Source: Candidatus Odinarchaeota archaeon
Lineage (GTDB): Archaea > Asgardarchaeota > JAGGXT01
Length of the DNA stretch: 12,143 nucleotides
Reading direction: 5' to 3'
Assembly (NCBI GenBank): GCA_021162905.1
Contig: JAGGXT010000220.1
Location: 1-12,143, forward strand
Below are positions 454 through 12,143 of the stretch, one piece after another. Made by a program: the position numbers and the translations under genes. Position 1 is the first letter of the stretch, and every line of letters begins with the position of its first letter. The notes beneath the pieces were generated by a model. It did no database searches. It had not been told where the DNA came from and saw only the letters and a list, made by a program, of their open reading frames with translations.

Positions 454-3400
454 ATGAAGGGGAGAACAACAATACTACTGATATCAGTAGCTCTGATCCT
501 AATAATACTAATGACCGCTCCAACAGAAAAAATTATTTCTACTCACAATAATAGAAGAAAAAATATTATTATAATCTCAGAAGATTCTAATATAGTGCTA
601 CTCTGGCTATACGCAACTGGAAGTAACGTGGTTTCATCGCCAGCACTCGGAGATATAGATAGCGACGGGAAACTGGAAGTCATCATTGGGAGCTATGACT
701 CTAAGGTGTATGCGTTGAATAGCGAGGACGGCTCGCTCCTCTGGTCCTACATAACTGAAGGCGGGATATACTCGTCGCCAGCACTTGGAGATATAGATAG
801 CGACGGGAAGTTAGAGGTTGTCGTGGGAAGTAATGATTATAAGGTGTATGCGTTGAACGGCGAGGACGGCTCGCTCCTCTGGTCCTATACAACTGGATAT
901 ACTATACCTTCATCGCCAGCACTTGGAGATATAGATGACGACGGGAAGTTAGAGGTTGTCGTGGGAAGTAATGATTATAAGGTGTATGCGTTGAACGGCG
1001 AGGACGGCTCGCTCCTCTGGTCCTATACAACTGAAGGCGGGATATACTCGTCGCCAGCACTTGGAGATATAGATAGCGACGGGAAGCTGGAGGTCGTCGT
1101 GGGAAGTGATGACTCTAAGGTGTATGCGTTGAACGGCGAGGACGGCTCGCTCCTCTGGTCCTATACAACTGAAGGTCAAGTATCTTCATCGCCAGCACTT
1201 GGAGATATAGATAGCGACGGGAAGCTGGAGGTTGTCGTGGGAAGTTATGACTCTAAGGTGTATGCGTTGAATGGCGAGGACGGCTCGCTCCTCTGGTCTT
1301 ACGCAACTGGTAGTGGGGCATATGGAAGTGGAGTACATTCGTCGCCGGCGCTTGGGGATGTAGATAGCGACGGGAAGCTGGAGGTCGTCGTGGGAAGTTA
1401 TGACTCTAAGGTGTATGCGTTGAATGGCGAGGACGGTTCGCTTCTCTGGTCTTACGCAACTGGTGATGTAGTATACTCGTCGCCGGCGCTTGGGGATGTA
1501 GATAGCGACGGGAAGCTGGAGGTCGTCGTGGGAAGTTGGGATGGTAAGGTGTATGCGTTGAACAGCGAGGACGGCTCGCTTCTCTGGTCTTATGCAACTG
1601 AAGGTGGGGTATACTCATCGCCGGCGCTTGGGGATATAGATGGTGACGGGAAGCTGGAGGTCGTCGTGGGAAGTGGTGATCAAAATGTGTGTGCGTTGAA
1701 CCCAATAGTTTCTGGTGTCATTAGCGCGTGGCCTTGTTTTAGAGGAGAGGCTAAACATAGTGGGAACTTAGAGATTATTGATGCTGATAAAGATGCTCTC
1801 TCATATTACTCGGAGGAGCTTCTTGGCACTGATCCGAATGATAATGATACCGATGATGACAATCTGCCAGATGGCTGGGAAGCAACATATGGTCTTGATG
1901 CAATGAATTCCAGCGATGCACTACTTGACAATGACAATGATGGTCTTACAAACTTGGAGGAGTATCAATATGCTACCTCACCTATAGATAACGATACCGA
2001 CAATGATGAGATGAGTGACGGATGGGAAATCGACTACGGTTTAGATCCAAAAAATGCCAGTGATGCTGATCTTGACAACGATAATGACAATCTCACAAAC
2101 GTGCAAGAGTACCTGCATGGAACATCTCCCATAAATAATGACACGGATAGCGATGGGATGCCAGATGGATGGGAAATCTCATATGGTCTAAATGCTACAT
2201 TTGATGACTCCAACTTAGATAATGACAACGATGAACTTACAAACTTTCAAGAATACCAATACGGCACGTCTCCCGTGAATGACGATACCGACAGCGATGA
2301 ACTAACCGATAGATGGGAAATCGATAATGAATTAAACGCAACAAACCCTGATACCGACGGTGACGGGATGTGGGACGGATGGGAGGTAACATACGGATTC
2401 AATGCAACCAATCCGGGTGATGCATTGCTTGATGCGGATGGTGACGGTCTAACGAATCTTGAGGAGTTTCAGCACGGAACGAAGCCCAACAGCACCGATA
2501 CCGACGGTGACGGGATGTGGGACAAGTGGGAAATCGATTATGGTCTGAACGCTACATTTGATGATGCATTGCTTGATGCGGATGGTGACGGTCTAACGAA
2601 TCTTGAGGAGTTTCAGCACGGAACGAAGCCCAACAGCACCGATAGCGACAGCGATGGGCTCAGCGATGGTTGGGAAATTTCGGAGGGACTGAATGCTACG
2701 AATGTGGATAGTGATTATGATGGGCTTGATGATAAGTGGGAGGTGGATCATGGCTTAAATGCAACAAGTGGTGATACAGACGGAGATGGTATGCCAGATG
2801 GTTGGGAGGTTGCTTATGGCTTAAATGCCTCGAATGATGACTCCTTTTTTGATAGTGATAATGATGGTTTAACGAATTTACAAGAGTACCAATATGGTAC
2901 AAAGCCCAACAACAAAGACAGTGACAACGACGGAATGTGGGATGGTTGGGAGGTAACATATGGTTTAAATGCTACCAATCCAGACGATGCCTCACTGGAT
3001 GCCGATGGAGATGGTCTCACAAATGTTCAAGAGTTTTCATATGGTACGAATCCAAATAGTGACGATACCGATAATGATGGCATGCCGGATGGTTGGGAAA
3101 TAGAGTTCGGCCTTAATGCAACATATGCTGGTGACTCATCTCAAGATAATGATAATGACGGTCTCACAAACTTAGAGGAGTATCAACATGGGACTGATCC
3201 CATAGATGAGGATACAGATGGTGATAACATGCCTGATGGCTGGGAGGTTGCTTACGGTCTTAACGCTACATATGCTGGCGATTCGTCCGAGGATAATGAT
3301 GGAGATGGCCTTACAAACTTAGAGGAGTACCAGCATGGAACCGATCCAACAAGTTCAGATACCGATAGCGATGGCATGCCAGATGGTTGGGAGGTAAGTT

Positions 3401-5529
3401 ATGGTCTTGATCCGACAAGCGATGATGCATTGCTGGACGGTGATGGAGACGGGCTTACGAATCTTCAGGAATATCAATATGGAACCGATCCACGGGTCTC
3501 TGACAGTGATGGTGACGGTATACCAGATGGCTGGGAGGTGCAGTTTGGTTATAATCCTAGGAGTTATGGCTTTATGGAGATTGTTCACTACTATTGGTTT
3601 GCGGAGGTTATTTCCGTTGCAGCTGTAGTGACGAGTGTTATGGCTTACAGAAAAGTGAAGTTCAGCAGGATTCTGAAAGAGGTTGAGAGGATTGTAAACA
3701 AGTATGGAGTCGTTTTGGTTGATGAGGTTGCGAACATTGTAAATATTAGTAGGGAGACCGCGCTGAAGGCGATTAGCCATATTCCAGGGTGTATTTTAAT
3801 AAGAGGCAATAAGTTTGCGGTAACTGAGGCAAAAGTTAGCTGGATAGTGGATGGAATCAAGAACCTTGTTTTCTCTGGCAAACAGCTGTACTACAGGTTA
3901 GAAGATTTCTCTGCATTGCGGGTTCCTACAGAGGTGCTGGAAGAGATTTTAACCATGAGAGGAAAGCAACTTTTGGATGAGGGAATTTATGTTGGCAGGG
4001 CATTTGGTGTCTACAATCTTGCTGTGCTGGATGAGATAATTGAGGAACTCAAAGAGAAAGCCAGTGAAGAAATTATACAGTTTGATGAGTGGGTTACCCA
4101 GCTTGGTGTACCTTTCGAGGATAAGGATTACATAAAGTCCTATTTAAGCCGTAAGAATATAAGGCTTGTTAACGGCTATGTAGTTACAGATAAATTGCTA
4201 CAGAAGCTTTCTGGGTTTGTGCGTGAAAAAGTTTTTGAGACTGGCGTTATGTCTATAGATGATTTGAACATACCAGCTCAAATCATTAGTGCTTTAAATC
4301 TCAGAGAGCTCGGGCTTTTAGTATCAAAGGATGGGAAGGTGCTTTATTCACAGGGATATCTGGTTGACGAGTTAAAGAAGTTGGCCAGTAGATATTCTAC
4401 TACGAGGTTAAGTGACATAGCTAAGATTTACAATGTAGACATAGATGGATTGAAGAGGTTTATAGGTGATATAGCATCTCAAGGGCTACTAAACATCGAG
4501 CTTGTTGGAGATACAATTATATTTAGTGATACGATGACTTTACATTTAACTAATGAACTTAGGCGGATATCTGCAACCAGACCTACTGTCAGGATTGATG
4601 AAGTTGCGAAAATCTTCAGTTTGAGCGAGGATGCGATTAGAAGATATCTTGAAGCTGTTGAGAGAAGAGGTCTTATTGGGATTGAGATAAAGGAAGATTT
4701 AGTTGTATTCAAAGAAGCTGTGGCTCCAGCTTTGCCTACACCTGTTGCCGAAACTGTTAAAGCAGTGATTCCAGGATATGTGACTCTTGATCTTATTGGG
4801 GCTGGAGGGTTCTCAACTGTTTTCAGAGCAAGAGATGAAGAAGGGAACATTGTTGCTTTAAAGATCATGAATATAACTGATAAAGACACAAAGAAGGTTT
4901 TCATGAGGGAAATATCGTTCTGGAAACCTTTAGAGCATCCGAACATTGTTAAATTGTTAGATTACGGAATAGAGCCGGTACCATTTATTGCAATGGAGTT
5001 GATGGACGGAACATTAAGAGATAAGCTAAAAGAGGGCCCCTTACCAGTAAAAGAAGCCCTAAAGATAATTCTAAATATCGCAATGGCATTGGAATATGCT
5101 CATAAGGAGTTCGCTCTTGTGCACAGAGATATAAAGCCTGAGAATGTGCTCTTTAAGGGTGAAGTATACAAATTGAGTGACTGGGGATTAGCCGGTGTAC
5201 AGACGATGTTAACAGCATCTGGGTATACTGGTACTATATTTTACTCGGCTCCAGAGCAATTCGACAAAAGTTTTGGTTCGATATCATTTTGGACTGATGT
5301 GTGGCAGCTTGGTGCAATGTTCTACGAAATGATAACTGGGGAGTTACCATTTGGGAAGGAACTTGGTGAAGTTATTAAGAATGTTCTTTATGGTGAGCCA
5401 AAGAAGCCAGAGGGAATAGACAAAGAGGTCTGGGAACTAATTAAGGCAATGCTGAATAAGAAACCGTCTGAAAGAATAACATTATCGGAACTTATTTTCA
5501 GAATAAAAGAGCTAATTGAAAAATTGTAA
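454..5529 (+). CDS. Receptor-like Ser/Thr protein kinase: beta-propeller, TSP3-like Ca2+ stalk, TM helix, tandem winged helices, kinase domain
   Basis: This 1691-residue protein probably spans the membrane and phosphorylates Ser/Thr in the cytoplasm in response to an outside cue. Residues 5-22 are a hydrophobic signal or anchor. Residues 61-415 are eight blades of about 46 residues, each with SSPALGD, a DxDxDG loop and a PQQ-like VYALN..DGSLLWSY strand; WPCFRG (426-431) may help close the propeller. Residues 440-1037 are Asp-rich TSP3-like repeats with 18 N-glycosylation sequons. Residues about 1043-1065 are a membrane helix followed by RKVKFSR, placing the C-terminus inside. Residues 1071-1422 look like about six winged-helix modules. 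The kinase (about 1443-1691) has the glycine loop GAGGFSTV (1449-1456), Lys1470, Glu1486, HRDIKPEN (Asp1559, Asn1564), DWG (1576-1578) in place of DFG, APE (1599-1601), Asp1615 and Arg1674, so it should be active. Ligand and substrate are unknown. The start is fixed by GGTGGTG at 444-450. Confidence 0.93.
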   Translation: MKGRTTILLISVALILIILMTAPTEKIISTHNNRRKNIIIISEDSNIVLLWLYATGSNVVSSPALGDIDSDGKLEVIIGSYDSKVYALNSEDGSLLWSYITEGGIYSSPALGDIDSDGKLEVVVGSNDYKVYALNGEDGSLLWSYTTGYTIPSSPALGDIDDDGKLEVVVGSNDYKVYALNGEDGSLLWSYTTEGGIYSSPALGDIDSDGKLEVVVGSDDSKVYALNGEDGSLLWSYTTEGQVSSSPALGDIDSDGKLEVVVGSYDSKVYALNGEDGSLLWSYATGSGAYGSGVHSSPALGDVDSDGKLEVVVGSYDSKVYALNGEDGSLLWSYATGDVVYSSPALGDVDSDGKLEVVVGSWDGKVYALNSEDGSLLWSYATEGGVYSSPALGDIDGDGKLEVVVGSGDQNVCALNPIVSGVISAWPCFRGEAKHSGNLEIIDADKDALSYYSEELLGTDPNDNDTDDDNLPDGWEATYGLDAMNSSDALLDNDNDGLTNLEEYQYATSPIDNDTDNDEMSDGWEIDYGLDPKNASDADLDNDNDNLTNVQEYLHGTSPINNDTDSDGMPDGWEISYGLNATFDDSNLDNDNDELTNFQEYQYGTSPVNDDTDSDELTDRWEIDNELNATNPDTDGDGMWDGWEVTYGFNATNPGDALLDADGDGLTNLEEFQHGTKPNSTDTDGDGMWDKWEIDYGLNATFDDALLDADGDGLTNLEEFQHGTKPNSTDSDSDGLSDGWEISEGLNATNVDSDYDGLDDKWEVDHGLNATSGDTDGDGMPDGWEVAYGLNASNDDSFFDSDNDGLTNLQEYQYGTKPNNKDSDNDGMWDGWEVTYGLNATNPDDASLDADGDGLTNVQEFSYGTNPNSDDTDNDGMPDGWEIEFGLNATYAGDSSQDNDNDGLTNLEEYQHGTDPIDEDTDGDNMPDGWEVAYGLNATYAGDSSEDNDGDGLTNLEEYQHGTDPTSSDTDSDGMPDGWEVSYGLDPTSDDALLDGDGDGLTNLQEYQYGTDPRVSDSDGDGIPDGWEVQFGYNPRSYGFMEIVHYYWFAEVISVAAVVTSVMAYRKVKFSRILKEVERIVNKYGVVLVDEVANIVNISRETALKAISHIPGCILIRGNKFAVTEAKVSWIVDGIKNLVFSGKQLYYRLEDFSALRVPTEVLEEILTMRGKQLLDEGIYVGRAFGVYNLAVLDEIIEELKEKASEEIIQFDEWVTQLGVPFEDKDYIKSYLSRKNIRLVNGYVVTDKLLQKLSGFVREKVFETGVMSIDDLNIPAQIISALNLRELGLLVSKDGKVLYSQGYLVDELKKLASRYSTTRLSDIAKIYNVDIDGLKRFIGDIASQGLLNIELVGDTIIFSDTMTLHLTNELRRISATRPTVRIDEVAKIFSLSEDAIRRYLEAVERRGLIGIEIKEDLVVFKEAVAPALPTPVAETVKAVIPGYVTLDLIGAGGFSTVFRARDEEGNIVALKIMNITDKDTKKVFMREISFWKPLEHPNIVKLLDYGIEPVPFIAMELMDGTLRDKLKEGPLPVKEALKIILNIAMALEYAHKEFALVHRDIKPENVLFKGEVYKLSDWGLAGVQTMLTASGYTGTIFYSAPEQFDKSFGSISFWTDVWQLGAMFYEMITGELPFGKELGEVIKNVLYGEPKKPEGIDKEVWELIKAMLNKKPSERITLSELIFRIKELIEKL
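634..1698 (+). repeat. Eight tandem beta-propeller repeats, period 138 bp
   Basis: SSPALGD recurs at residues 61, 107, 153, 199, 245, 296, 342 and 388, with spacing of 46 residues except for small insertions around blades five and six. Near-identity extends to the DNA: positions 801-895 and 939-1033 are 95 identical bases. The units therefore look recently duplicated or homogenised rather than merely conserved in protein. Confidence 0.9.
1828..3564 (+). repeat. Asp-rich TSP3-like tandem repeats, main period 144-147 bp
   Basis: Each full unit has a D.DxDGMPDGWE..YGLNAT part followed by LD.DGDGLTNLEEYQ.GT.P. The Trp of the WE motif falls at residues 475, 524, 573, 621, 643, 692, 740, 762, 784, 832, 881, 930, 979 and 1027. 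Ten spacings are 48 or 49 residues and three are 22, where the GLTN half is missing. Positions 2418-2500 and 2562-2644 are 83 identical bases. Such repeats are known calcium-binding stalk elements; calcium binding here is inferred from the aspartates. Confidence 0.88.
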
Positions 5530-5682: not shown

Positions 5683-5994
5683 ATGGTGATAAAAATAACA
5701 ATAATTACAAAAGAGAAAGTCTTAGAAATATTGCGTAAGGAACTGCCTTACCTAAGGAAAAAGTACAAAGTGAAGAGAATCGGTGTCTTTGGTTCGTTTG
5801 CTAGGGACGAGCAAACCATTAAGAGCGATATAGATATATTAGTAGAATTTGAAAAGCCAATAGGGCTCTTTAAATTTATAGAGCTTGAGATGTATCTAAG
5901 TGAAAAATTGGGACGGAAAGTCGATTTGGTTACGCATAATGCACTAAAGCCCCTAATAAAAGACAAGGTGCTGAGGGAGCTCATATATGTCTAA
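5683..5994 (+). CDS. mntA: MntA-type minimal nucleotidyltransferase (antitoxin of a HEPN/MNT module)
   Basis: This 103-residue protein belongs to the minimal nucleotidyltransferase (MNT) family. In characterised MntA/HepT systems the MntA partner neutralises the HepT RNase by adding AMP groups to a tyrosine. The polymerase-beta-like signature is complete: GSFARDE at residues 37-43, then SDIDILVEF with the metal-binding Asp49 and Asp51, and a third acidic residue at Asp81 (KVDLVT). The length is normal for the family. The ribosome-binding site is weak (AAGG at 5667-5670, about 12 bases upstream), and GTG at 5686 is an alternative start. The last 8 bases overlap the hepT remnant, the usual translationally coupled arrangement. 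Because that toxin is truncated, this protein may now act as an orphan. Family assignment is firm; its present role is not. Confidence 0.85.
   Translation: MVIKITIITKEKVLEILRKELPYLRKKYKVKRIGVFGSFARDEQTIKSDIDILVEFEKPIGLFKFIELEMYLSEKLGRKVDLVTHNALKPLIKDKVLRELIYV
5973..5979 (+). promoter_or_regulatory. Strong ribosome-binding site for the hepT remnant
   Basis: GAGGGAG lies inside the end of the nucleotidyltransferase gene, seven bases before the ATG at 5987. It is a better site than the one before the antitoxin itself and indicates that the toxin frame was, and perhaps still is, translated. Confidence 0.5.
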
Positions 5995-6145
5995 AAAGAG
6001 GAATGTAATGTTTTTTCTTAACGATATATTAATTGCTATTGATAAAATAAAGAGATATACGAAAAATATGACTTTTGATGAATTCTTGTATGACGAAAAA
6101 ACGATTTTTAATGTTTTCTTCAGCAAAGATCGGGTAAGTAAATAA
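5987..6145 (+). pseudogene. hepT: Truncated HepT (DUF86/HEPN) toxin, 52 codons
   Basis: The frame starts with an ATG that overlaps the end of mntA by 8 bases and encodes FLNDILIAIDKIKRYTK followed by MTFDEFLYDEKTI. This matches the first two helices of HepT family HEPN toxins as I know them (pattern YLeDILeaI.kIeeYtkgmsfeeFl.d..t). Full-length HepT is about 110-145 residues and its RNase site, R-x4-6-H, sits in the C-terminal half. Here the reading frame drifts into an unrelated tail (FFSKDRVSK) and stops, so the catalytic part is absent. The next 150 bases hold no recognisable remainder, which points to a deletion rather than a single frameshift. It should be non-toxic; a short regulatory peptide is possible but not supported. 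Confidence 0.7.
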
Positions 6146-6329: not shown

Positions 6330-7712
6330 GTGCTTAGAAGGGTATGTCTAACTAATGGAAAGGCAGTTATAAAGGGGCTTAGAGGTATAGGGAAAACAAC
6401 AATCATGAAAAGATTGTGTGATGAGTTTAAGGGGATTTATATTGATTTTCAAAACATTCTAAGGCCAAAACATCTTGCTATGGTGATAAGAGAATTAACT
6501 GGTAGAACAATAAATTGCGAGAATCCCCATGCTTGTCTAGAAGAAATGTTTAAGGTGGCTTATGAACTGAAGAAACCTCTTTTTCTTGATGAGTTCATAG
6601 ATTTAATAGCAAGATTTGGATTGATGATGCCTTATCGTGGTTCTGGTGGATCAGATGCCGTGGCAATGCACTTTAGGAGTCTATTACAGAAATATGATAT
6701 TCCTATAATTATATCTGCGACATCCCTTAAGACTCTTAGTGAAATTACTGGACGTTATACTAAACCGCTTGCAAGAGCGTTTGATGTTATACTAACTCTT
6801 CATCCATTGAAATTACATGATGCTGTTAAACTGGCATATCAAATAGCTGAAAGTTTAGGCATATCAATATCTGATGATGTGGCTCTTAAGATTGCAGAGA
6901 TATCTGGAGGAAACCCTGATTATATAAAGGCCATAATTTACAAACTTCCAAAAGTTGTGAATAGTGTGGATATTCTGTTAGAATATTTTGAACGGGAGTT
7001 AAGAGAGGGTTACTTTGCAGCTTTGTTCTCTGGGTTAAGGAAGGAATTATCACCATCTGAGTTTGAAGTTTTAACCATAATCTCAAGAGGCAACAATAGG
7101 TATTCCGAAATCAGCCGATTGACAACTGGGATAAATCTTAATGAAACCTTAACTTCGCTTCTCGATCGTGGTCTCGTAGAAAAAGTAATCCTTAGTAAAA
7201 AAGATAGTAGATACATAATTACAGATAAGACATTCGAGGCTTGGTTAGCTTTATTAGAATTCCCTGGCTTAAAAAGGATTTCAATGAAAAGGTTGCAAGT
7301 TTCCACTTTATCATTTGAGGCGTTAATCAGAGAATTATTTATGACAATAGACAAGACGATAGAACTTAAAGATTTCACTGGAAAGCCATTGACAATAGAC
7401 AAAGTTTCAAAGGTTTATCGATATTCGGGAGCCCTAGGAGAAATAGATGCCATTGTTATAACAAAAACTCAAAAAATTGTTTTAGAGATTTATTTTGGAA
7501 ACAAATGCCCAGAGGAAAAGCTAAATCAACTCCTAAAAAATATAGCTATTGCAGAAAAAGTCGAGGGGGCTGTGGATATCGGGATACTTATATCATACTT
7601 TGGCTTCTCAAAAGAACTTGTGCAAAAGTCTAAGGGCTTCAAAAACATTTTTCTACTTTCTGAACGTGAAATAAATTTGATTGCCTCAAAAACAAAGTAT
7701 AGACAGATATAG
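6330..7712 (+). CDS. Archaeal AAA ATPase with C-terminal DUF234-like domain; 5' end apparently frameshifted
   Basis: This is a STAND-like archaeal ATPase (ATPase_2 family). From the GTG at 6330 it has Walker A GLRGIGKTT (residues 16-24), Walker B LFLDE (84-88), a sensor-1-like strand IIISATS (126-132), a winged helix at about 240-290, and a DUF234-like tail at about 325-460 containing GEIDAIV and LEIYFGNK. The DUF234 fold resembles PD-(D/E)xK nucleases, but its usual ExK is ExY here. Family members normally begin with F-V-x-R-E-x-E-L. That motif (FVDRENELEVL) is encoded in this frame at 6303-6335, yet a stop at 6294-6296 separates it from any start. Losing one T from the T6 run at 6299-6304 would join it to the ATG at 6293, which has a proper GGTG site. 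The true protein is thus probably about 472 residues, through slippage, a sequence error or a recent mutation. Cellular role unknown. Confidence 0.85.
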   Translation: MLRRVCLTNGKAVIKGLRGIGKTTIMKRLCDEFKGIYIDFQNILRPKHLAMVIRELTGRTINCENPHACLEEMFKVAYELKKPLFLDEFIDLIARFGLMMPYRGSGGSDAVAMHFRSLLQKYDIPIIISATSLKTLSEITGRYTKPLARAFDVILTLHPLKLHDAVKLAYQIAESLGISISDDVALKIAEISGGNPDYIKAIIYKLPKVVNSVDILLEYFERELREGYFAALFSGLRKELSPSEFEVLTIISRGNNRYSEISRLTTGINLNETLTSLLDRGLVEKVILSKKDSRYIITDKTFEAWLALLEFPGLKRISMKRLQVSTLSFEALIRELFMTIDKTIELKDFTGKPLTIDKVSKVYRYSGALGEIDAIVITKTQKIVLEIYFGNKCPEEKLNQLLKNIAIAEKVEGAVDIGILISYFGFSKELVQKSKGFKNIFLLSEREINLIASKTKYRQI

Positions 7713-7793
7713 CTCATATAAATTGTTCGAAAATGTTATAATTTTTAATTTTGAATGCATATATGGTTTAGTTTCAAAATTGTGGTGAATGTT
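7713..7793 (+). promoter_or_regulatory. Terminator/promoter region between the ATPase and the peptidase
   Basis: TATAAATT at 7717-7724 and TTATAATTTTT at 7736-7746 are both possible TATA elements; the second also contains T-runs that could end the ATPase transcript. GGTG at 7784-7787 is six bases before ATG 7794 and decides the peptidase start. Confidence 0.35.
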
Positions 7794-9245
7794 ATGAGTC
7801 AGGAGCTTCTAATAAAACTTTGTGAGCAGCTTGAGGATATCAGGGTTAGATTTAATGATGAATATTACAAGATGTATGCTGGTTTGGATTTCAGTAAAGA
7901 CACACTTAAGAAACTCTCTGAGGAAAAGTATAAAATTAGCATTGAGATACTAAAGAGATTTAATGAGCCCAGAAGACTATATTTGGCTATGATATACACT
8001 GTTGTAGAGCATGAACGGCTGGATATAGACTTGAAGCTTTATGAGGAGAAAGGGAAAAAGATAGTCGATGAGGAATATTTGATCGATGGGAAACCGGTAA
8101 ATTGGAATACTTGGCGACAGTTTAATGCCAGAACAGAGGACCATAAAGCCCGAAAACATGTTTTTGACACTTTCATTTCAAAAGTGCCTCTTATTTCACC
8201 TTTAGAGGAGAAACTATTCAATACTTCTAAAGAAATTATGGCAAGATATGGAACAAATCCGCTTGATGCATACTTAGAGTTTGAAGGTTTGAGTTACGAA
8301 AGCCTAATATCCCTTGTTGATAAGTTGGGTAGCTTCGCTAAGTCAGATTTCCAAAAAGCATTAGAGTATTACTCTATGGAGATTCTTAAAAAGCCAGCAG
8401 AATATTATGATGACCTCTATTTATTCAGAGGAAAGATATATAGGCCGATAAATAAATACTTCGAAGGAATAGACCCAATAAAGGTTGTCTCAAAAGTTTT
8501 GACCCGCCTTGGCTTTGATTTGACGAAAATCAAAGTTGATGGAGAAGATAGACCTAGGAAACATCCTTCAGCAATGTGTTGGGGAATTCAAATACCCAAT
8601 GATGTAAGAATCCTATTTAAGCCTGTTTCTCCGTTCACGGATATAACAAGTGTTTTTCACGAATTCGGGCATGGCATTCATGGTGCATCAGCAATTCCAA
8701 CGGATCCTTATTGGAAGAGATATCTAGTGAGTATGGGAGTTGCAGAAACTTTCTCAATATTAATAGAAACACTGATGGACACTCCAGAGTTTGTTAAACA
8801 GACATTTAAGCTTGACAATAAAATCGTGCAAGATGTTATAAACAGAAGGCATTTCATGAACCTCTTCTTCTTGACATTCTATGCGGCAAATTCAACAATG
8901 AAGCTCAAATTCTGGAAATACAATTACACTCTTGATGAAGCAAATAATGAGTATGAAGCATTGACAGAAAAGTATATGGGAATTAGAATACCGGGAAGAT
9001 ACTGGCAGCTACATCACGTAATGTCCGAATATGATTTGTATTCTCCAAGTTACTTAATTGCGGCAGTTAGAGTTGGTGAATTAGTCAATAAATTAGTGAA
9101 TGAGTATGGTACTGATTGGTGGCAAAATAAAGAAGCTGGCGAATTCATTAGAGAGCTAGCAAGCCAAAGGGCCGATATTGATTTATCCTGGTCAAAATTA
9201 GAGCCAAAATACTACATTAGCTATTTTGCTAAGGTAGACCTTTAA
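7794..9245 (+). CDS. M3-like zinc metallopeptidase (oligopeptidase)
   Basis: The product, 483 residues from the chosen start, is a predicted soluble zinc peptidase that cleaves oligopeptides in the cytoplasm. The zinc site is HEFGHGIH at residues 289-296 (His289, Glu290, His293), with the further His296 typical of the M3 motif HExGHxxH. Glu318 in SMGVAETFSILIE is the likely third zinc ligand. A Tyr/His-rich stretch near 400-425 (YWQLHHVMSEYDLYSPSY) resembles the substrate-binding region of M3/M32 enzymes. It is shorter than PepF (about 600 residues) and near M32 carboxypeptidase length, but M32 lacks the GHxxH pattern. I chose ATG 7794 over ATG 7755 because GGTG precedes it at ideal spacing and the 13 extra codons look like leader. 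There is no signal peptide. It meets the transporter gene tail to tail, so the two are not co-transcribed. Confidence 0.82.
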   Translation: MSQELLIKLCEQLEDIRVRFNDEYYKMYAGLDFSKDTLKKLSEEKYKISIEILKRFNEPRRLYLAMIYTVVEHERLDIDLKLYEEKGKKIVDEEYLIDGKPVNWNTWRQFNARTEDHKARKHVFDTFISKVPLISPLEEKLFNTSKEIMARYGTNPLDAYLEFEGLSYESLISLVDKLGSFAKSDFQKALEYYSMEILKKPAEYYDDLYLFRGKIYRPINKYFEGIDPIKVVSKVLTRLGFDLTKIKVDGEDRPRKHPSAMCWGIQIPNDVRILFKPVSPFTDITSVFHEFGHGIHGASAIPTDPYWKRYLVSMGVAETFSILIETLMDTPEFVKQTFKLDNKIVQDVINRRHFMNLFFLTFYAANSTMKLKFWKYNYTLDEANNEYEALTEKYMGIRIPGRYWQLHHVMSEYDLYSPSYLIAAVRVGELVNKLVNEYGTDWWQNKEAGEFIRELASQRADIDLSWSKLEPKYYISYFAKVDL

Positions 9246-10596: not shown

Positions 10597-12143
10597 TTAA
10601 TATTCTATGGATTTACTCTCAACCTTCTCCTTTACATAGTTTATGAAGTCGTCGATGCTCATTACTTCTTGTCCTTCTTTTCCTCTAATTCTAACGGCGA
10701 CTGTTCCAGAACTCTCTTCTCTCTTACCAACTACTAAGATGTATGGTATTTTGTTGGTGATATGTAATCTCACCCTATAGGAAACAGTTTCCTTTGAATC
10801 ATCAAGTTCAACTCGAATTCCTGCCTTCTTAAGTCTATCATAAACTTGTTTTGCATAACCCAATACTGGATCGCTAACTGGAATAATAACCGCTTGTACT
10901 GGTGCTACCCATAATGGTAAGGCACCACCATATTGTTCGACTAATAACCCAACGAAACGCTCTATCGAGCCTAGTAATGCTCGATGAAGCATAACAACAA
11001 GCTTCTCTTCATTGTTAACGTCTATGTAAGTTACTTTGAATCTCTGAGGCAAATTAAAGTCAACTTGTATAGTTGCGCATTGCCATAACCTATTAAGCGA
11101 ATCTCTAAAGTGAGCATCTATTTTTGGGCCGTAGAATGCAGCTTCACCAACTGCAATTTTGTACTTAATTCCCTTCTTCTCGAGGGCTGCTTTTAGCTTA
11201 GACTCAGCATGCTCCCAGATTTCGTCAGAACCCATAAATTCTTCTGGTTTATCTGGGTCTCTTGTAGATAAAACTGCCTCAAATTCCACAAAACCAAAGT
11301 CCCTATAAATATCCATCATGAGCTCAATTAAGCCTATTATCTCGTCTTCTAACTGATCGGGACGGCAGAATATATGAGCATCATCCTGGGTAAATCCACG
11401 GACTCTTAGAAGCCCTTTTAGTACACCAGATCTTTCATAACGATATACAGTTCCTAATTCGAAATACCTTACTGGCAAATCTTTATAGCTGTGAACCTTT
11501 CTCTTATAGATTAATATATGCATTGGGCAGTTCATAGGCTTTAGTGCATATTTTACACCCTCTATATCAAAAAGATACATGTTTTCTCTGTAAAATTCTA
11601 AATGCCCTGAGGTCTTATATAAATCGGATTTGGCAATATGCGGTGTTACAACGATCTCATACCCTCTGCTTAAATGTAGGTCAACAAGATATCTCTGGAT
11701 CAACTCTCTCAAAATAGCACCTTTTGGATGCCAAAGAACTAAACCCGCTCCAAGCAATTCATGGGTACTAAATAAATCTAATTGCACACCTAAGCGTCTA
11801 TGATCTCTCCTCTTAATTTCTTCAAGTCTTGTTAGGTATTCATCAAGCATTGACTTTTCTGGAAACGATATACCATAAATTCTTTGCATTACTGGCTCGC
11901 TTTCTAATCCATGCCAGTATGCCGATGCAGTTAAGGTTAATTTAAAATGCTTAACATATCCAGTATGTGGAAGGTGTGGTCCACGGCACAGATCAACAAA
12001 ATCTCCTTGCCAGTACACGCTTACAATTTCATCCTCAATTTCATCTAACAGACGTAGCTTAAATTCTTCATTTCTGTCCTTAAAAAGTCTTCTCGCTTCC
12101 TCTTTTGATATTTCTTTTCTAATGAGTGGTAGCTTTCTTGCAA
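10597..12143 (-). CDS. thrS: Threonyl-tRNA synthetase, bacterial-type (5' end outside window)
   Basis: The enzyme charges tRNA-Thr with threonine. The reading frame stays open to the right edge, upstream of GTG 12018, and encodes LPLIRKEISKEEARRLF, the linker typical of the bacterial-type editing domain, so the gene is cut by the window. Numbering from GTG 12018, the editing-site pair is Cys11 and His15 in VDLCRGPH. The class II core follows: motif 1 around GAGLVLWHPKGA (90-101), zinc ligands Cys164 (MNCPMH), His215 (DDAHIF) and His345, motif 2 near YRYERSGVLKGLLRVRGFTQ (192-211) and motif 3 HRALLGSIERF (345-355). The anticodon-binding domain runs from about 365 to the end. Most euryarchaeal enzymes carry a different, DTD-like N-terminal editing domain, so this version is notable. 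All visible key residues are intact, so it should be active. Confidence 0.95.
   Translation of the reverse strand, partial: ARKLPLIRKEISKEEARRLFKDRNEEFKLRLLDEIEDEIVSVYWQGDFVDLCRGPHLPHTGYVKHFKLTLTASAYWHGLESEPVMQRIYGISFPEKSMLDEYLTRLEEIKRRDHRRLGVQLDLFSTHELLGAGLVLWHPKGAILRELIQRYLVDLHLSRGYEIVVTPHIAKSDLYKTSGHLEFYRENMYLFDIEGVKYALKPMNCPMHILIYKRKVHSYKDLPVRYFELGTVYRYERSGVLKGLLRVRGFTQDDAHIFCRPDQLEDEIIGLIELMMDIYRDFGFVEFEAVLSTRDPDKPEEFMGSDEIWEHAESKLKAALEKKGIKYKIAVGEAAFYGPKIDAHFRDSLNRLWQCATIQVDFNLPQRFKVTYIDVNNEEKLVVMLHRALLGSIERFVGLLVEQYGGALPLWVAPVQAVIIPVSDPVLGYAKQVYDRLKKAGIRVELDDSKETVSYRVRLHITNKIPYILVVGKREESSGTVAVRIRGKEGQEVMSIDDFINYVKEKVESKSIEY

What the first reader, a model, noticed from the sequence alone, without database searches (positions are those of the whole stretch)
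454..5529. A complete receptor-type Ser/Thr kinase in an archaeal context
One gene joins an eight-blade calcium-loop propeller, a 14-unit TSP3-like stalk, one membrane helix, winged-helix-like modules and a kinase with all catalytic residues (Lys1470, Glu1486, Asp1559, Asn1564, Asp1576). Bacterial PknB-type kinases have the kinase at the N-terminus and the sensor outside at the C-terminus; this order is reversed, as in animal and plant receptor kinases. I know of no characterised archaeal protein with this layout. The ligand could be a glycan, the S-layer or a neighbouring cell.
Basis: partly seen in the sequence, partly recalled or inferred. Interest (0 to 1): 0.82.

Follow-up and report, generated by a model that had tools for sequence, protein, structure and literature searches.

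The report
Archaeal receptor kinase with UFL1-like modules
An archaeon whose closest named relatives are Asgard archaea carries one gene for a complete receptor-shaped protein kinase (outside sensor, calcium-loop stalk, membrane helix, inside kinase), and the segment joining membrane to kinase resembles parts of the human UFL1/DDRGK1 protein-tagging machine.

Summary
In detail: ORF 454-5529 (1691 aa) encodes an eight-blade propeller, 14 TSP3-like units, one membrane helix, six winged helices (WH) and a kinase with all named catalytic residues. Four other proteins have the same order, so it is no chimera. The reversed order is a group trait: among the best Halobacteriota matches 28 of 33 kinase ORFs have a membrane segment before the kinase, none after; in 79 bacterial loci 73 kinases are N-terminal, none C-terminal. 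Window family and archaeal matches share a DWG motif and lie on one side of a branch (100/96). Unexpected is the WH array: UFL1 (PF09743) or PCI models pass the curated cut-off in 5 of 5 members, and the five best PDB fold matches are UFL1 or UFL1-DDRGK1 chains (E 5.9e-11 to 1.0e-8). Threonyl-tRNA synthetase groups with an 'Asgardarchaeia' entry. A 2023 paper places the origin of UFL1 and DDRGK1 in Asgard archaea, before UFM1 (passages). Most likely a surface receptor kinase with a PCI/UFL1-type scaffold; activity, ligand and partners are untested.

The parts
454..5529 (+). whole receptor-kinase gene, 1691 aa
   Evidence: same order in P0001, P0002, P0003, P0005
454..543 (+). N-terminal hydrophobic segment, signal peptide or signal anchor (residues 1-30)
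   Evidence: Kyte-Doolittle 2.46; a like segment near the N-terminus of the 4 relatives
634..1758 (+). eight-blade FG-GAP/PQQ-type propeller with eight DxDxDG loops (residues 61-435)
1777..3561 (+). TSP3-like calcium-loop stalk, 14 DGWE-type units with interleaved DGLTNLEEY-type units (residues 442-1036)
   Evidence: last unit read directly
3589..3648 (+). membrane helix (residues about 1046-1065)
3649..3825 (+). winged helix 1 (1066-1124)
   Evidence: AlphaFold2 model of the array; coordinates
3826..4017 (+). winged helix 2 (1125-1188)
4018..4185 (+). winged helix 3 (1189-1244)
4189..4350 (+). winged helix 4 (1246-1299)
   Evidence: the PF09743 match begins in it
4351..4524 (+). winged helix 5 (1300-1357); weak PCI match, below cut-off
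4525..4710 (+). winged helix 6 (1358-1419)
4768..5526 (+). Ser/Thr kinase domain (residues 1439-1691): GAGGFSTVF, VALK, HRDIKPEN, DWG, APE, TDVWQ

Best explanation
A type-I surface receptor kinase of an Asgard-affiliated archaeon. The propeller at the tip of a long, acidic, calcium-loop stalk binds a ligand outside the cell. The signal crosses one membrane helix, probably by clustering or dimerising, so that the inside kinases phosphorylate each other. The PCI/UFL1-type winged-helix array between membrane and kinase is a protein-binding scaffold that sets the reach of the kinase and recruits partners or substrates. Shown here: the domain order, intact catalytic motifs, six predicted WH units with a UFL1/PCI-type sequence and fold signal, relatives with the same order, and placement in a mainly archaeal DWG kinase group. 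Inferred from family knowledge: outside/inside topology and kinase activity. Inferred only: ligand, clustering, partner binding.
Confidence: 0.72

Rival explanations
1. Membrane-tethered transcription regulator: the WH array binds DNA or RNA and the kinase switches it, as in membrane-bound one-component regulators.
For: Weak HTH models match WH6 (HTH_17, HTH_DeoR, HTH_11; all below cut-off). SelB WH domains, which bind RNA, are fold neighbours.
Against: Array net charge -2, pI 6.0; third helices measured net -3 to +1. Best sequence and fold matches are UFL1/PCI types. Against this argument, WH1 alone is basic (+6) and two relatives have basic WH regions (P0003 +5, P0002 +3).
Confidence: 0.12
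2. Surface adhesin first: propeller and stalk hold on to a matrix, S-layer or cell, and the kinase reports mechanical load or mere contact rather than a soluble ligand.
For: Long acidic repeat stalk (net -196 for residues 31-1040); the stalk differs in length among relatives. NCBIfam adhesion and motility models such as MtsD and CglD ring on the stalk, far below cut-off.
Against: Those matches are to the generic repeat. The propeller is present in all five members while the stalk shrinks to about 2-3 units in some (by eye).
Confidence: 0.3
3. The layout is an assembly or gene-prediction chimera of a surface protein and a downstream kinase.
For: Highly repetitive DNA; GC 0.54 in the propeller against about 0.35 in the flanks.
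Against: Four relatives with the same order and 36-48% identity over the C-terminal part; one uninterrupted frame.
Confidence: 0.02
4. Pseudokinase or constitutively active scaffold: DWG in place of DFG marks a kinase that does not switch.
For: DWG in all five family members. CK2alpha, a constitutively active kinase, has DWG (recalled).
Against: All catalytic residues present; DWG is shared by all 33 distinct Halobacteriota ORFs examined, so it is a group trait, not decay.
Confidence: 0.12

Closest known systems
Bacterial PknB/PrkC/StkP-type membrane Ser/Thr kinases
   Same: Hanks kinase motifs, single TM, outside sensor
   Different: Kinase N-terminal there (73 of 79 bacterial loci, 0 C-terminal); no PASTA hit here; mostly DFG there (96 of 107 ORFs, DWG in 0), DWG here
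Plant receptor-like kinases and animal receptor Ser/Thr kinases
   Same: Order ectodomain - TM - kinase
   Different: No closer sequence kinship seen in the 60 listed PDB matches; WH array not known there (recalled)
UFL1 (UFM1 E3 ligase) and DDRGK1
   Same: Tandem winged helices of a like type; DDRGK1 is an ER membrane protein in complex with UFL1 (PMC10183829 passage). Foldseek E 5.9e-11 to the UFL1-DDRGK1 chimera 8b9x
   Different: Fused to a kinase and an ectodomain; PF09743 positions 1-34 and 154-272 not in the window's matched stretch; no DDRGK model hit at E <= 0.1
PCI-domain proteins (CSN2, eIF3e, proteasome lid)
   Same: The last WH before the kinase matches the PCI model over cut-off in 3 of 5 members (P0001, P0002, P0005); CSN2 and eIF3e in the profile search
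   Different: In the window PCI stays below cut-off (17.4 against 22 bits); membrane receptor kinase context
Euryarchaeota-predominant kinase cluster 32 of Tyagi et al. 2010 (PMC2877116, passages seen)
   Same: An archaeal kinase subfamily; may overlap the DWG group (not tested)
   Different: Receptor order, DWG and WH array are not mentioned in the passages seen

Membership tests
Hanks-type (eukaryotic-like) Ser/Thr kinases | Catalytic Lys, aC Glu, HRD Asp, Asn, DxG Asp and APE; Pkinase model | tested here: met
PknB/PASTA bacterial receptor kinases | Kinase at N-terminus | tested here: not met
   Kinase at 1442-1680 of 1691
PknB/PASTA bacterial receptor kinases | PASTA repeats outside / NCBIfam PknB_PASTA_kin cut-off | tested here: not met
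   No PASTA hit; NF033483 149.5 bits against 450
Eukaryotic receptor Ser/Thr kinases / RLKs | Ectodomain - single TM - kinase order | tested here: met
Eukaryotic receptor Ser/Thr kinases / RLKs | Kinase domain nearest to TKL/Pelle or TGF-beta receptor kinases | tested here: inconclusive
   The 60 shown of 2466 PDB matches carry no such name; no tree with such kinases was built
UFL1 | PF09743 match over curated cut-off | tested here: met
   29.1 bits for the window WH piece, 23.4 for the whole protein, cut-off 23.2; 3 of 5 members over it as pieces; 0 of 294 Halobacteriota genomes and 0 of 14 controls over it
UFL1 | N-terminal UFC1-binding segment and full-length UFL1 profile | tested here: not met
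   Only positions 35-153 of 272 matched in the window; 103-233 or parts of it in P0001, P0003, P0005; the role of the first positions is recalled
UFL1 | UFM1/UFC1 present in the same genome | not testable with these tools
   No whole genome held
DDRGK1 | DDRGK Pfam family match | tested here: not met
   Not listed at E <= 0.1
DWG receptor-kinase group (defined here) | DWG motif and placement with the group when that residue is masked | tested here: met
   46 rows on one side of a branch, 100/96; 8 of the 46 were chosen because they have DWG, and only one of those 8 (P0021) bears an archaeal name
DWG receptor-kinase group (defined here) | Membrane segment before, not after, the kinase | tested here: met
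   28 of 33 Halobacteriota ORFs have TM before, 0 after; window

The most novel reading that the evidence does not exclude
UFL1/DDRGK1-type winged-helix scaffolds first served in membrane phosphosignalling. In Asgard-lineage archaea without UFM1 they linked surface receptors to Ser/Thr kinases, and eukaryotes later recruited the same membrane-anchored scaffold for UFMylation. The window gene would be a living example of that pre-UFM1 use, within a wider archaeal class of ectodomain-TM-kinase receptors that arose independently of animal and plant ones.
Probability: 0.15. Interest if true: 0.9.

Novelty: new variant of a known kind. Interest (0 to 1): 0.72.

Why it matters
Receptor Ser/Thr kinases with the sensor first and the kinase last are best known from animals and plants (recalled). 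Here the same order appears as a group trait of DWG kinases of archaea, with different ectodomains (propeller-stalk, NosD beta-helix, PKD/Ig-like). The window's member also joins such a receptor to UFL1/PCI-type winged helices in a lineage close to a named Asgard entry. A 2023 paper (PMC10183829, passages seen) inferred that UFL1 and DDRGK1 are older than UFM1 and may have had another function. This gene gives that question a concrete, expressible candidate.

Tried and rejected
Whole-genome search in the window's own assembly: none held, so UFM1, UFC1, standalone UFL1 and phosphatases of the host could not be looked for. It therefore says nothing about Asgard genomes and could not be repeated. 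The listing of the full C-terminal model in Foldseek (50 shown) held kinases only, so the WH array was predicted alone. A WH model built from the window's own six units finds the other members only weakly (one hit under E 0.001, in P0001; P0121 apart), so WH counts in relatives rest on spacer length and alignment, not on that model. N-glycosylation of the stalk: 18 sequons in residues 31-1040 against a shuffled mean of 11.5 and maximum of 22, so not strong. Defence-system reading: the 25 PADLOC rows shown of 33 hit the kinase domain with many generic kinase models, not taken as evidence. DNA-binding reading: kept as a rival, not favoured. Papers: ten answered searches listed no paper whose title, abstract start or passages read describe this layout in archaea. 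The library lacks most subscription papers, so this is not proof of absence.

Selection to keep in mind: DWG counts in Halobacteriota are from the 33 distinct ORFs of the best-scoring loci, not from all matches in 80 of 294 genomes; 3 of the 33 (L085, L086, L091) do not fit the pattern HxDxK[PA]xN. 'Halobacteriota' is my name for the phylum of G001, the genome of the Methanomicrobiales locus L001; the tool gives no group names for these genomes. DWG was seen in 12 of 120 proteins of the list, 0 of 120 of the list and 0 of 107 ORFs of L002-L080; 12 of these 347 had none or only part of the motif aligned. Trees: one search used 25 hand-picked non-DWG proteins (one, P0016, from a eukaryote source) and the 14 best of 105 bacterial ORFs, and dropped rows under 190 aa or identical; one search left out P0016 (long branch). 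One search used 66 of 120 threonyl-tRNA synthetases (fragment P0259 and the rows P0300-P0360 other than eight named ones left out). One search left out P0079. Layout thresholds are my own (kinase start within 120 aa, end within 60 aa, Kyte-Doolittle 1.8), and many Halobacteriota ORFs are cut at the 5' end of the locus.

Full report
CHECK. The gene is real and as described. ORF 454-5529 (+) is one uninterrupted frame of 1691 aa. Pfam finds propeller models (Beta-prop_ACSF4 228.5 bits against a cut-off of 133, best stretch 213-416; FG-GAP_3; PQQ_2), TSP3_bac in 13 stretches and Pkinase at 1442-1680 with E 1.3e-46. Eight blade motifs and eight DxDxDG loops are present. Fourteen stalk units: 13 by pattern and one more at residue 1017 seen directly. 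The membrane helix at about 1046-1065 is weak on its own (best 19-mer 1.48) but lies where all four relatives have clear helices; in the window the flank is acidic outside (-3) and basic inside (+4). A further hydrophobic segment at the N-terminus is a signal peptide or anchor.

NOT A CHIMERA, BUT RARE. A search of 5.8 billion clustered proteins with residues 1075-1691 scored 7991 candidates and found 765 matches. In four of the 120 listed (P0001, P0002, P0003, P0005; 983-1404 aa) the full order propeller, TSP3-like stalk, TM, WH and kinase recurs; in P0001 and P0002 the stalk is short and was recognised by pattern and by eye, not by a TSP3 model. C-terminal identity to the window is 36-48%. 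A search with the C-terminal alignment for shorter proteins added one near-copy fragment, P0121 (88% identical, 244 aa). Both searches scored only the candidates sharing most words, so more relatives may exist.

HOST. No genome is held. The threonyl-tRNA synthetase at 10597-12141 has as closest named entries 'Candidatus Asgardarchaeia archaeon' (66%), 'Thermoprotei archaeon' (61%) and 'Candidatus Njordarchaeales archaeon' (59%). In a tree of 66 rows the window groups with the Asgardarchaeia entry (SH-aLRT 100), and Njordarchaeales joins next (97). This is one gene, of a bacterial-like type, with few names; whether Njordarchaeales belong to Asgard is disputed (recalled). I call the host Asgard-affiliated, not proven Asgard.

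ORDER OF DOMAINS. A profile of the five members was run on 294 genomes of the phylum of a Methanomicrobiales locus (Halobacteriota, my naming): 80 have a match at E <= 1e-10. Among 33 distinct kinase ORFs from the best loci, 28 have a membrane segment before the kinase, 22 of these with the kinase at the C-terminal end, and none has one after it. Among 79 bacterial loci from the genome scan, 73 kinases are N-terminal (60 with TM after) and none is C-terminal. Five of nine Halobacteriota ORFs examined with Pfam carry a NosD beta-helix before TM and kinase. P0009 (beta-helix) and P0012 (PKD/Ig-like) show the same with other ectodomains; P0048 has a PQQ propeller and a C-terminal kinase, but no membrane segment passed the threshold in it. 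So the reversed order is a trait of a group, not a singularity of this gene.

THE DWG GROUP. All 33 Halobacteriota ORFs examined and all five window-family members have DWG instead of DFG. In the comparison sets DWG is in 12 of 120 (one search list, four of them the window family's own relatives), 0 of 120 (one search list) and 0 of 107 (bacterial loci). With the variable residue masked, the 46 DWG rows fall on one side of a branch with support 100/96 (unmasked). The window family is a clade of its own inside (100). DWG is known from the active kinase CK2alpha (recalled), so it need not mean loss of activity.

VARIATION. The spacer between TM and kinase is 372, 270, 106, 296 and 329 residues in the window, P0001, P0002, P0003 and P0005. 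In P0121 it is 80: the first half of WH1 runs straight into the second half of WH6 (by eye). The array thus grows and shrinks by whole units, or P0121 is an assembly collapse.

MECHANISM. Best reading: ligand binding by the propeller on a calcium-loop stalk, signal through one TM, kinase activation by proximity, and WH scaffold for partners. Shown: anatomy, motifs, kinship. Inferred: topology, activity. Conjecture: ligand and partners.

AGAINST THE KNOWN. Not a PknB/PASTA kinase (order and PASTA not met). Like eukaryotic receptor kinases in order; closer kinship was not found but not properly tested. Not a UFL1 or DDRGK1 protein: the profile match is partial and there is no DDRGK hit. The EMBO J. 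[quoted passage not shown] The MBE 2014 paper PMC4327156 (passages seen) states that Ufm1 was absent from archaea and bacteria in its sampling. The BMC Genomics 2005 survey PMC1262709 (passages seen) describes archaeal multidomain kinases with an N-terminal glycoprotease domain, and names Deinococcus and Streptomyces for PQQ-repeat kinases. Ten literature searches listed no report of this layout in archaea (see Tried and rejected).

VERDICT. A true and complete receptor-type kinase gene, a new variant of a known kind.

Noticed in passing
window 5683-6145 (+): MntA-like nucleotidyltransferase (103 aa; NF047752 54.5 bits, cut-off 60; PDC-S09 in PADLOC) followed by a 52-aa ORF that looks like the start of a HepT/HEPN partner cut short (by eye, from recall of that family): perhaps a decayed HepT-MntA toxin-antitoxin pair.
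   Followed up: partly
window 10597-12141 (-): Threonyl-tRNA synthetase of the bacterial-like type (TIGR00418 650 bits, over its cut-off; PRK03991 231 bits, below its cut-off of 484), shared with the archaeal entries in the tree.
   Followed up: partly
window 1001-1500: GC rises to 0.54 in the propeller against about 0.35 in most of the window; four of the five other copies of a 300-base blade stretch are 82-87% alike in DNA to the reference, suggesting recent repeat homogenisation or expansion.
   Followed up: no
window 1777-3561 (stalk): 14 N[AS][ST] tripeptides, many at the same place of the stalk units (GLNATN); P0001 and P0002 have no NA[ST], P0003 and P0005 have 1 and 3. Possible N-glycan sites; total sequon number not beyond the shuffled maximum.
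   Followed up: partly
P0121 (244 aa): Near-copy of the window's TM-to-kinase part with the six WH units reduced to one WH1/WH6 hybrid, joined at a shared DEVA stretch: natural unit deletion or assembly collapse.
   Followed up: partly
L109, L112, L114, L001, L096: Halobacteriota receptor-shaped kinases with a NosD beta-helix ectodomain, 279-318 residues between two membrane segments and a C-terminal DWG kinase.
   Followed up: yes
L085, L086, L088, L091, L097, L099, L100, L102, L106, L110, L111: A second Halobacteriota type: three or more membrane segments before a DWG kinase.
   Followed up: no
window 6330-7712 (+): Archaeal-type ATPase (AAA_14 and ATPase_2, both below cut-off) with a GTG start that may be called too late.
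   Followed up: no
window 7755-9245 (+): M3/M32-like metallopeptidase of unusual sequence: Peptidase_M3 35.3 bits (cut-off 27), NCBIfam M3_fam_3 far below cut-off.
   Followed up: no
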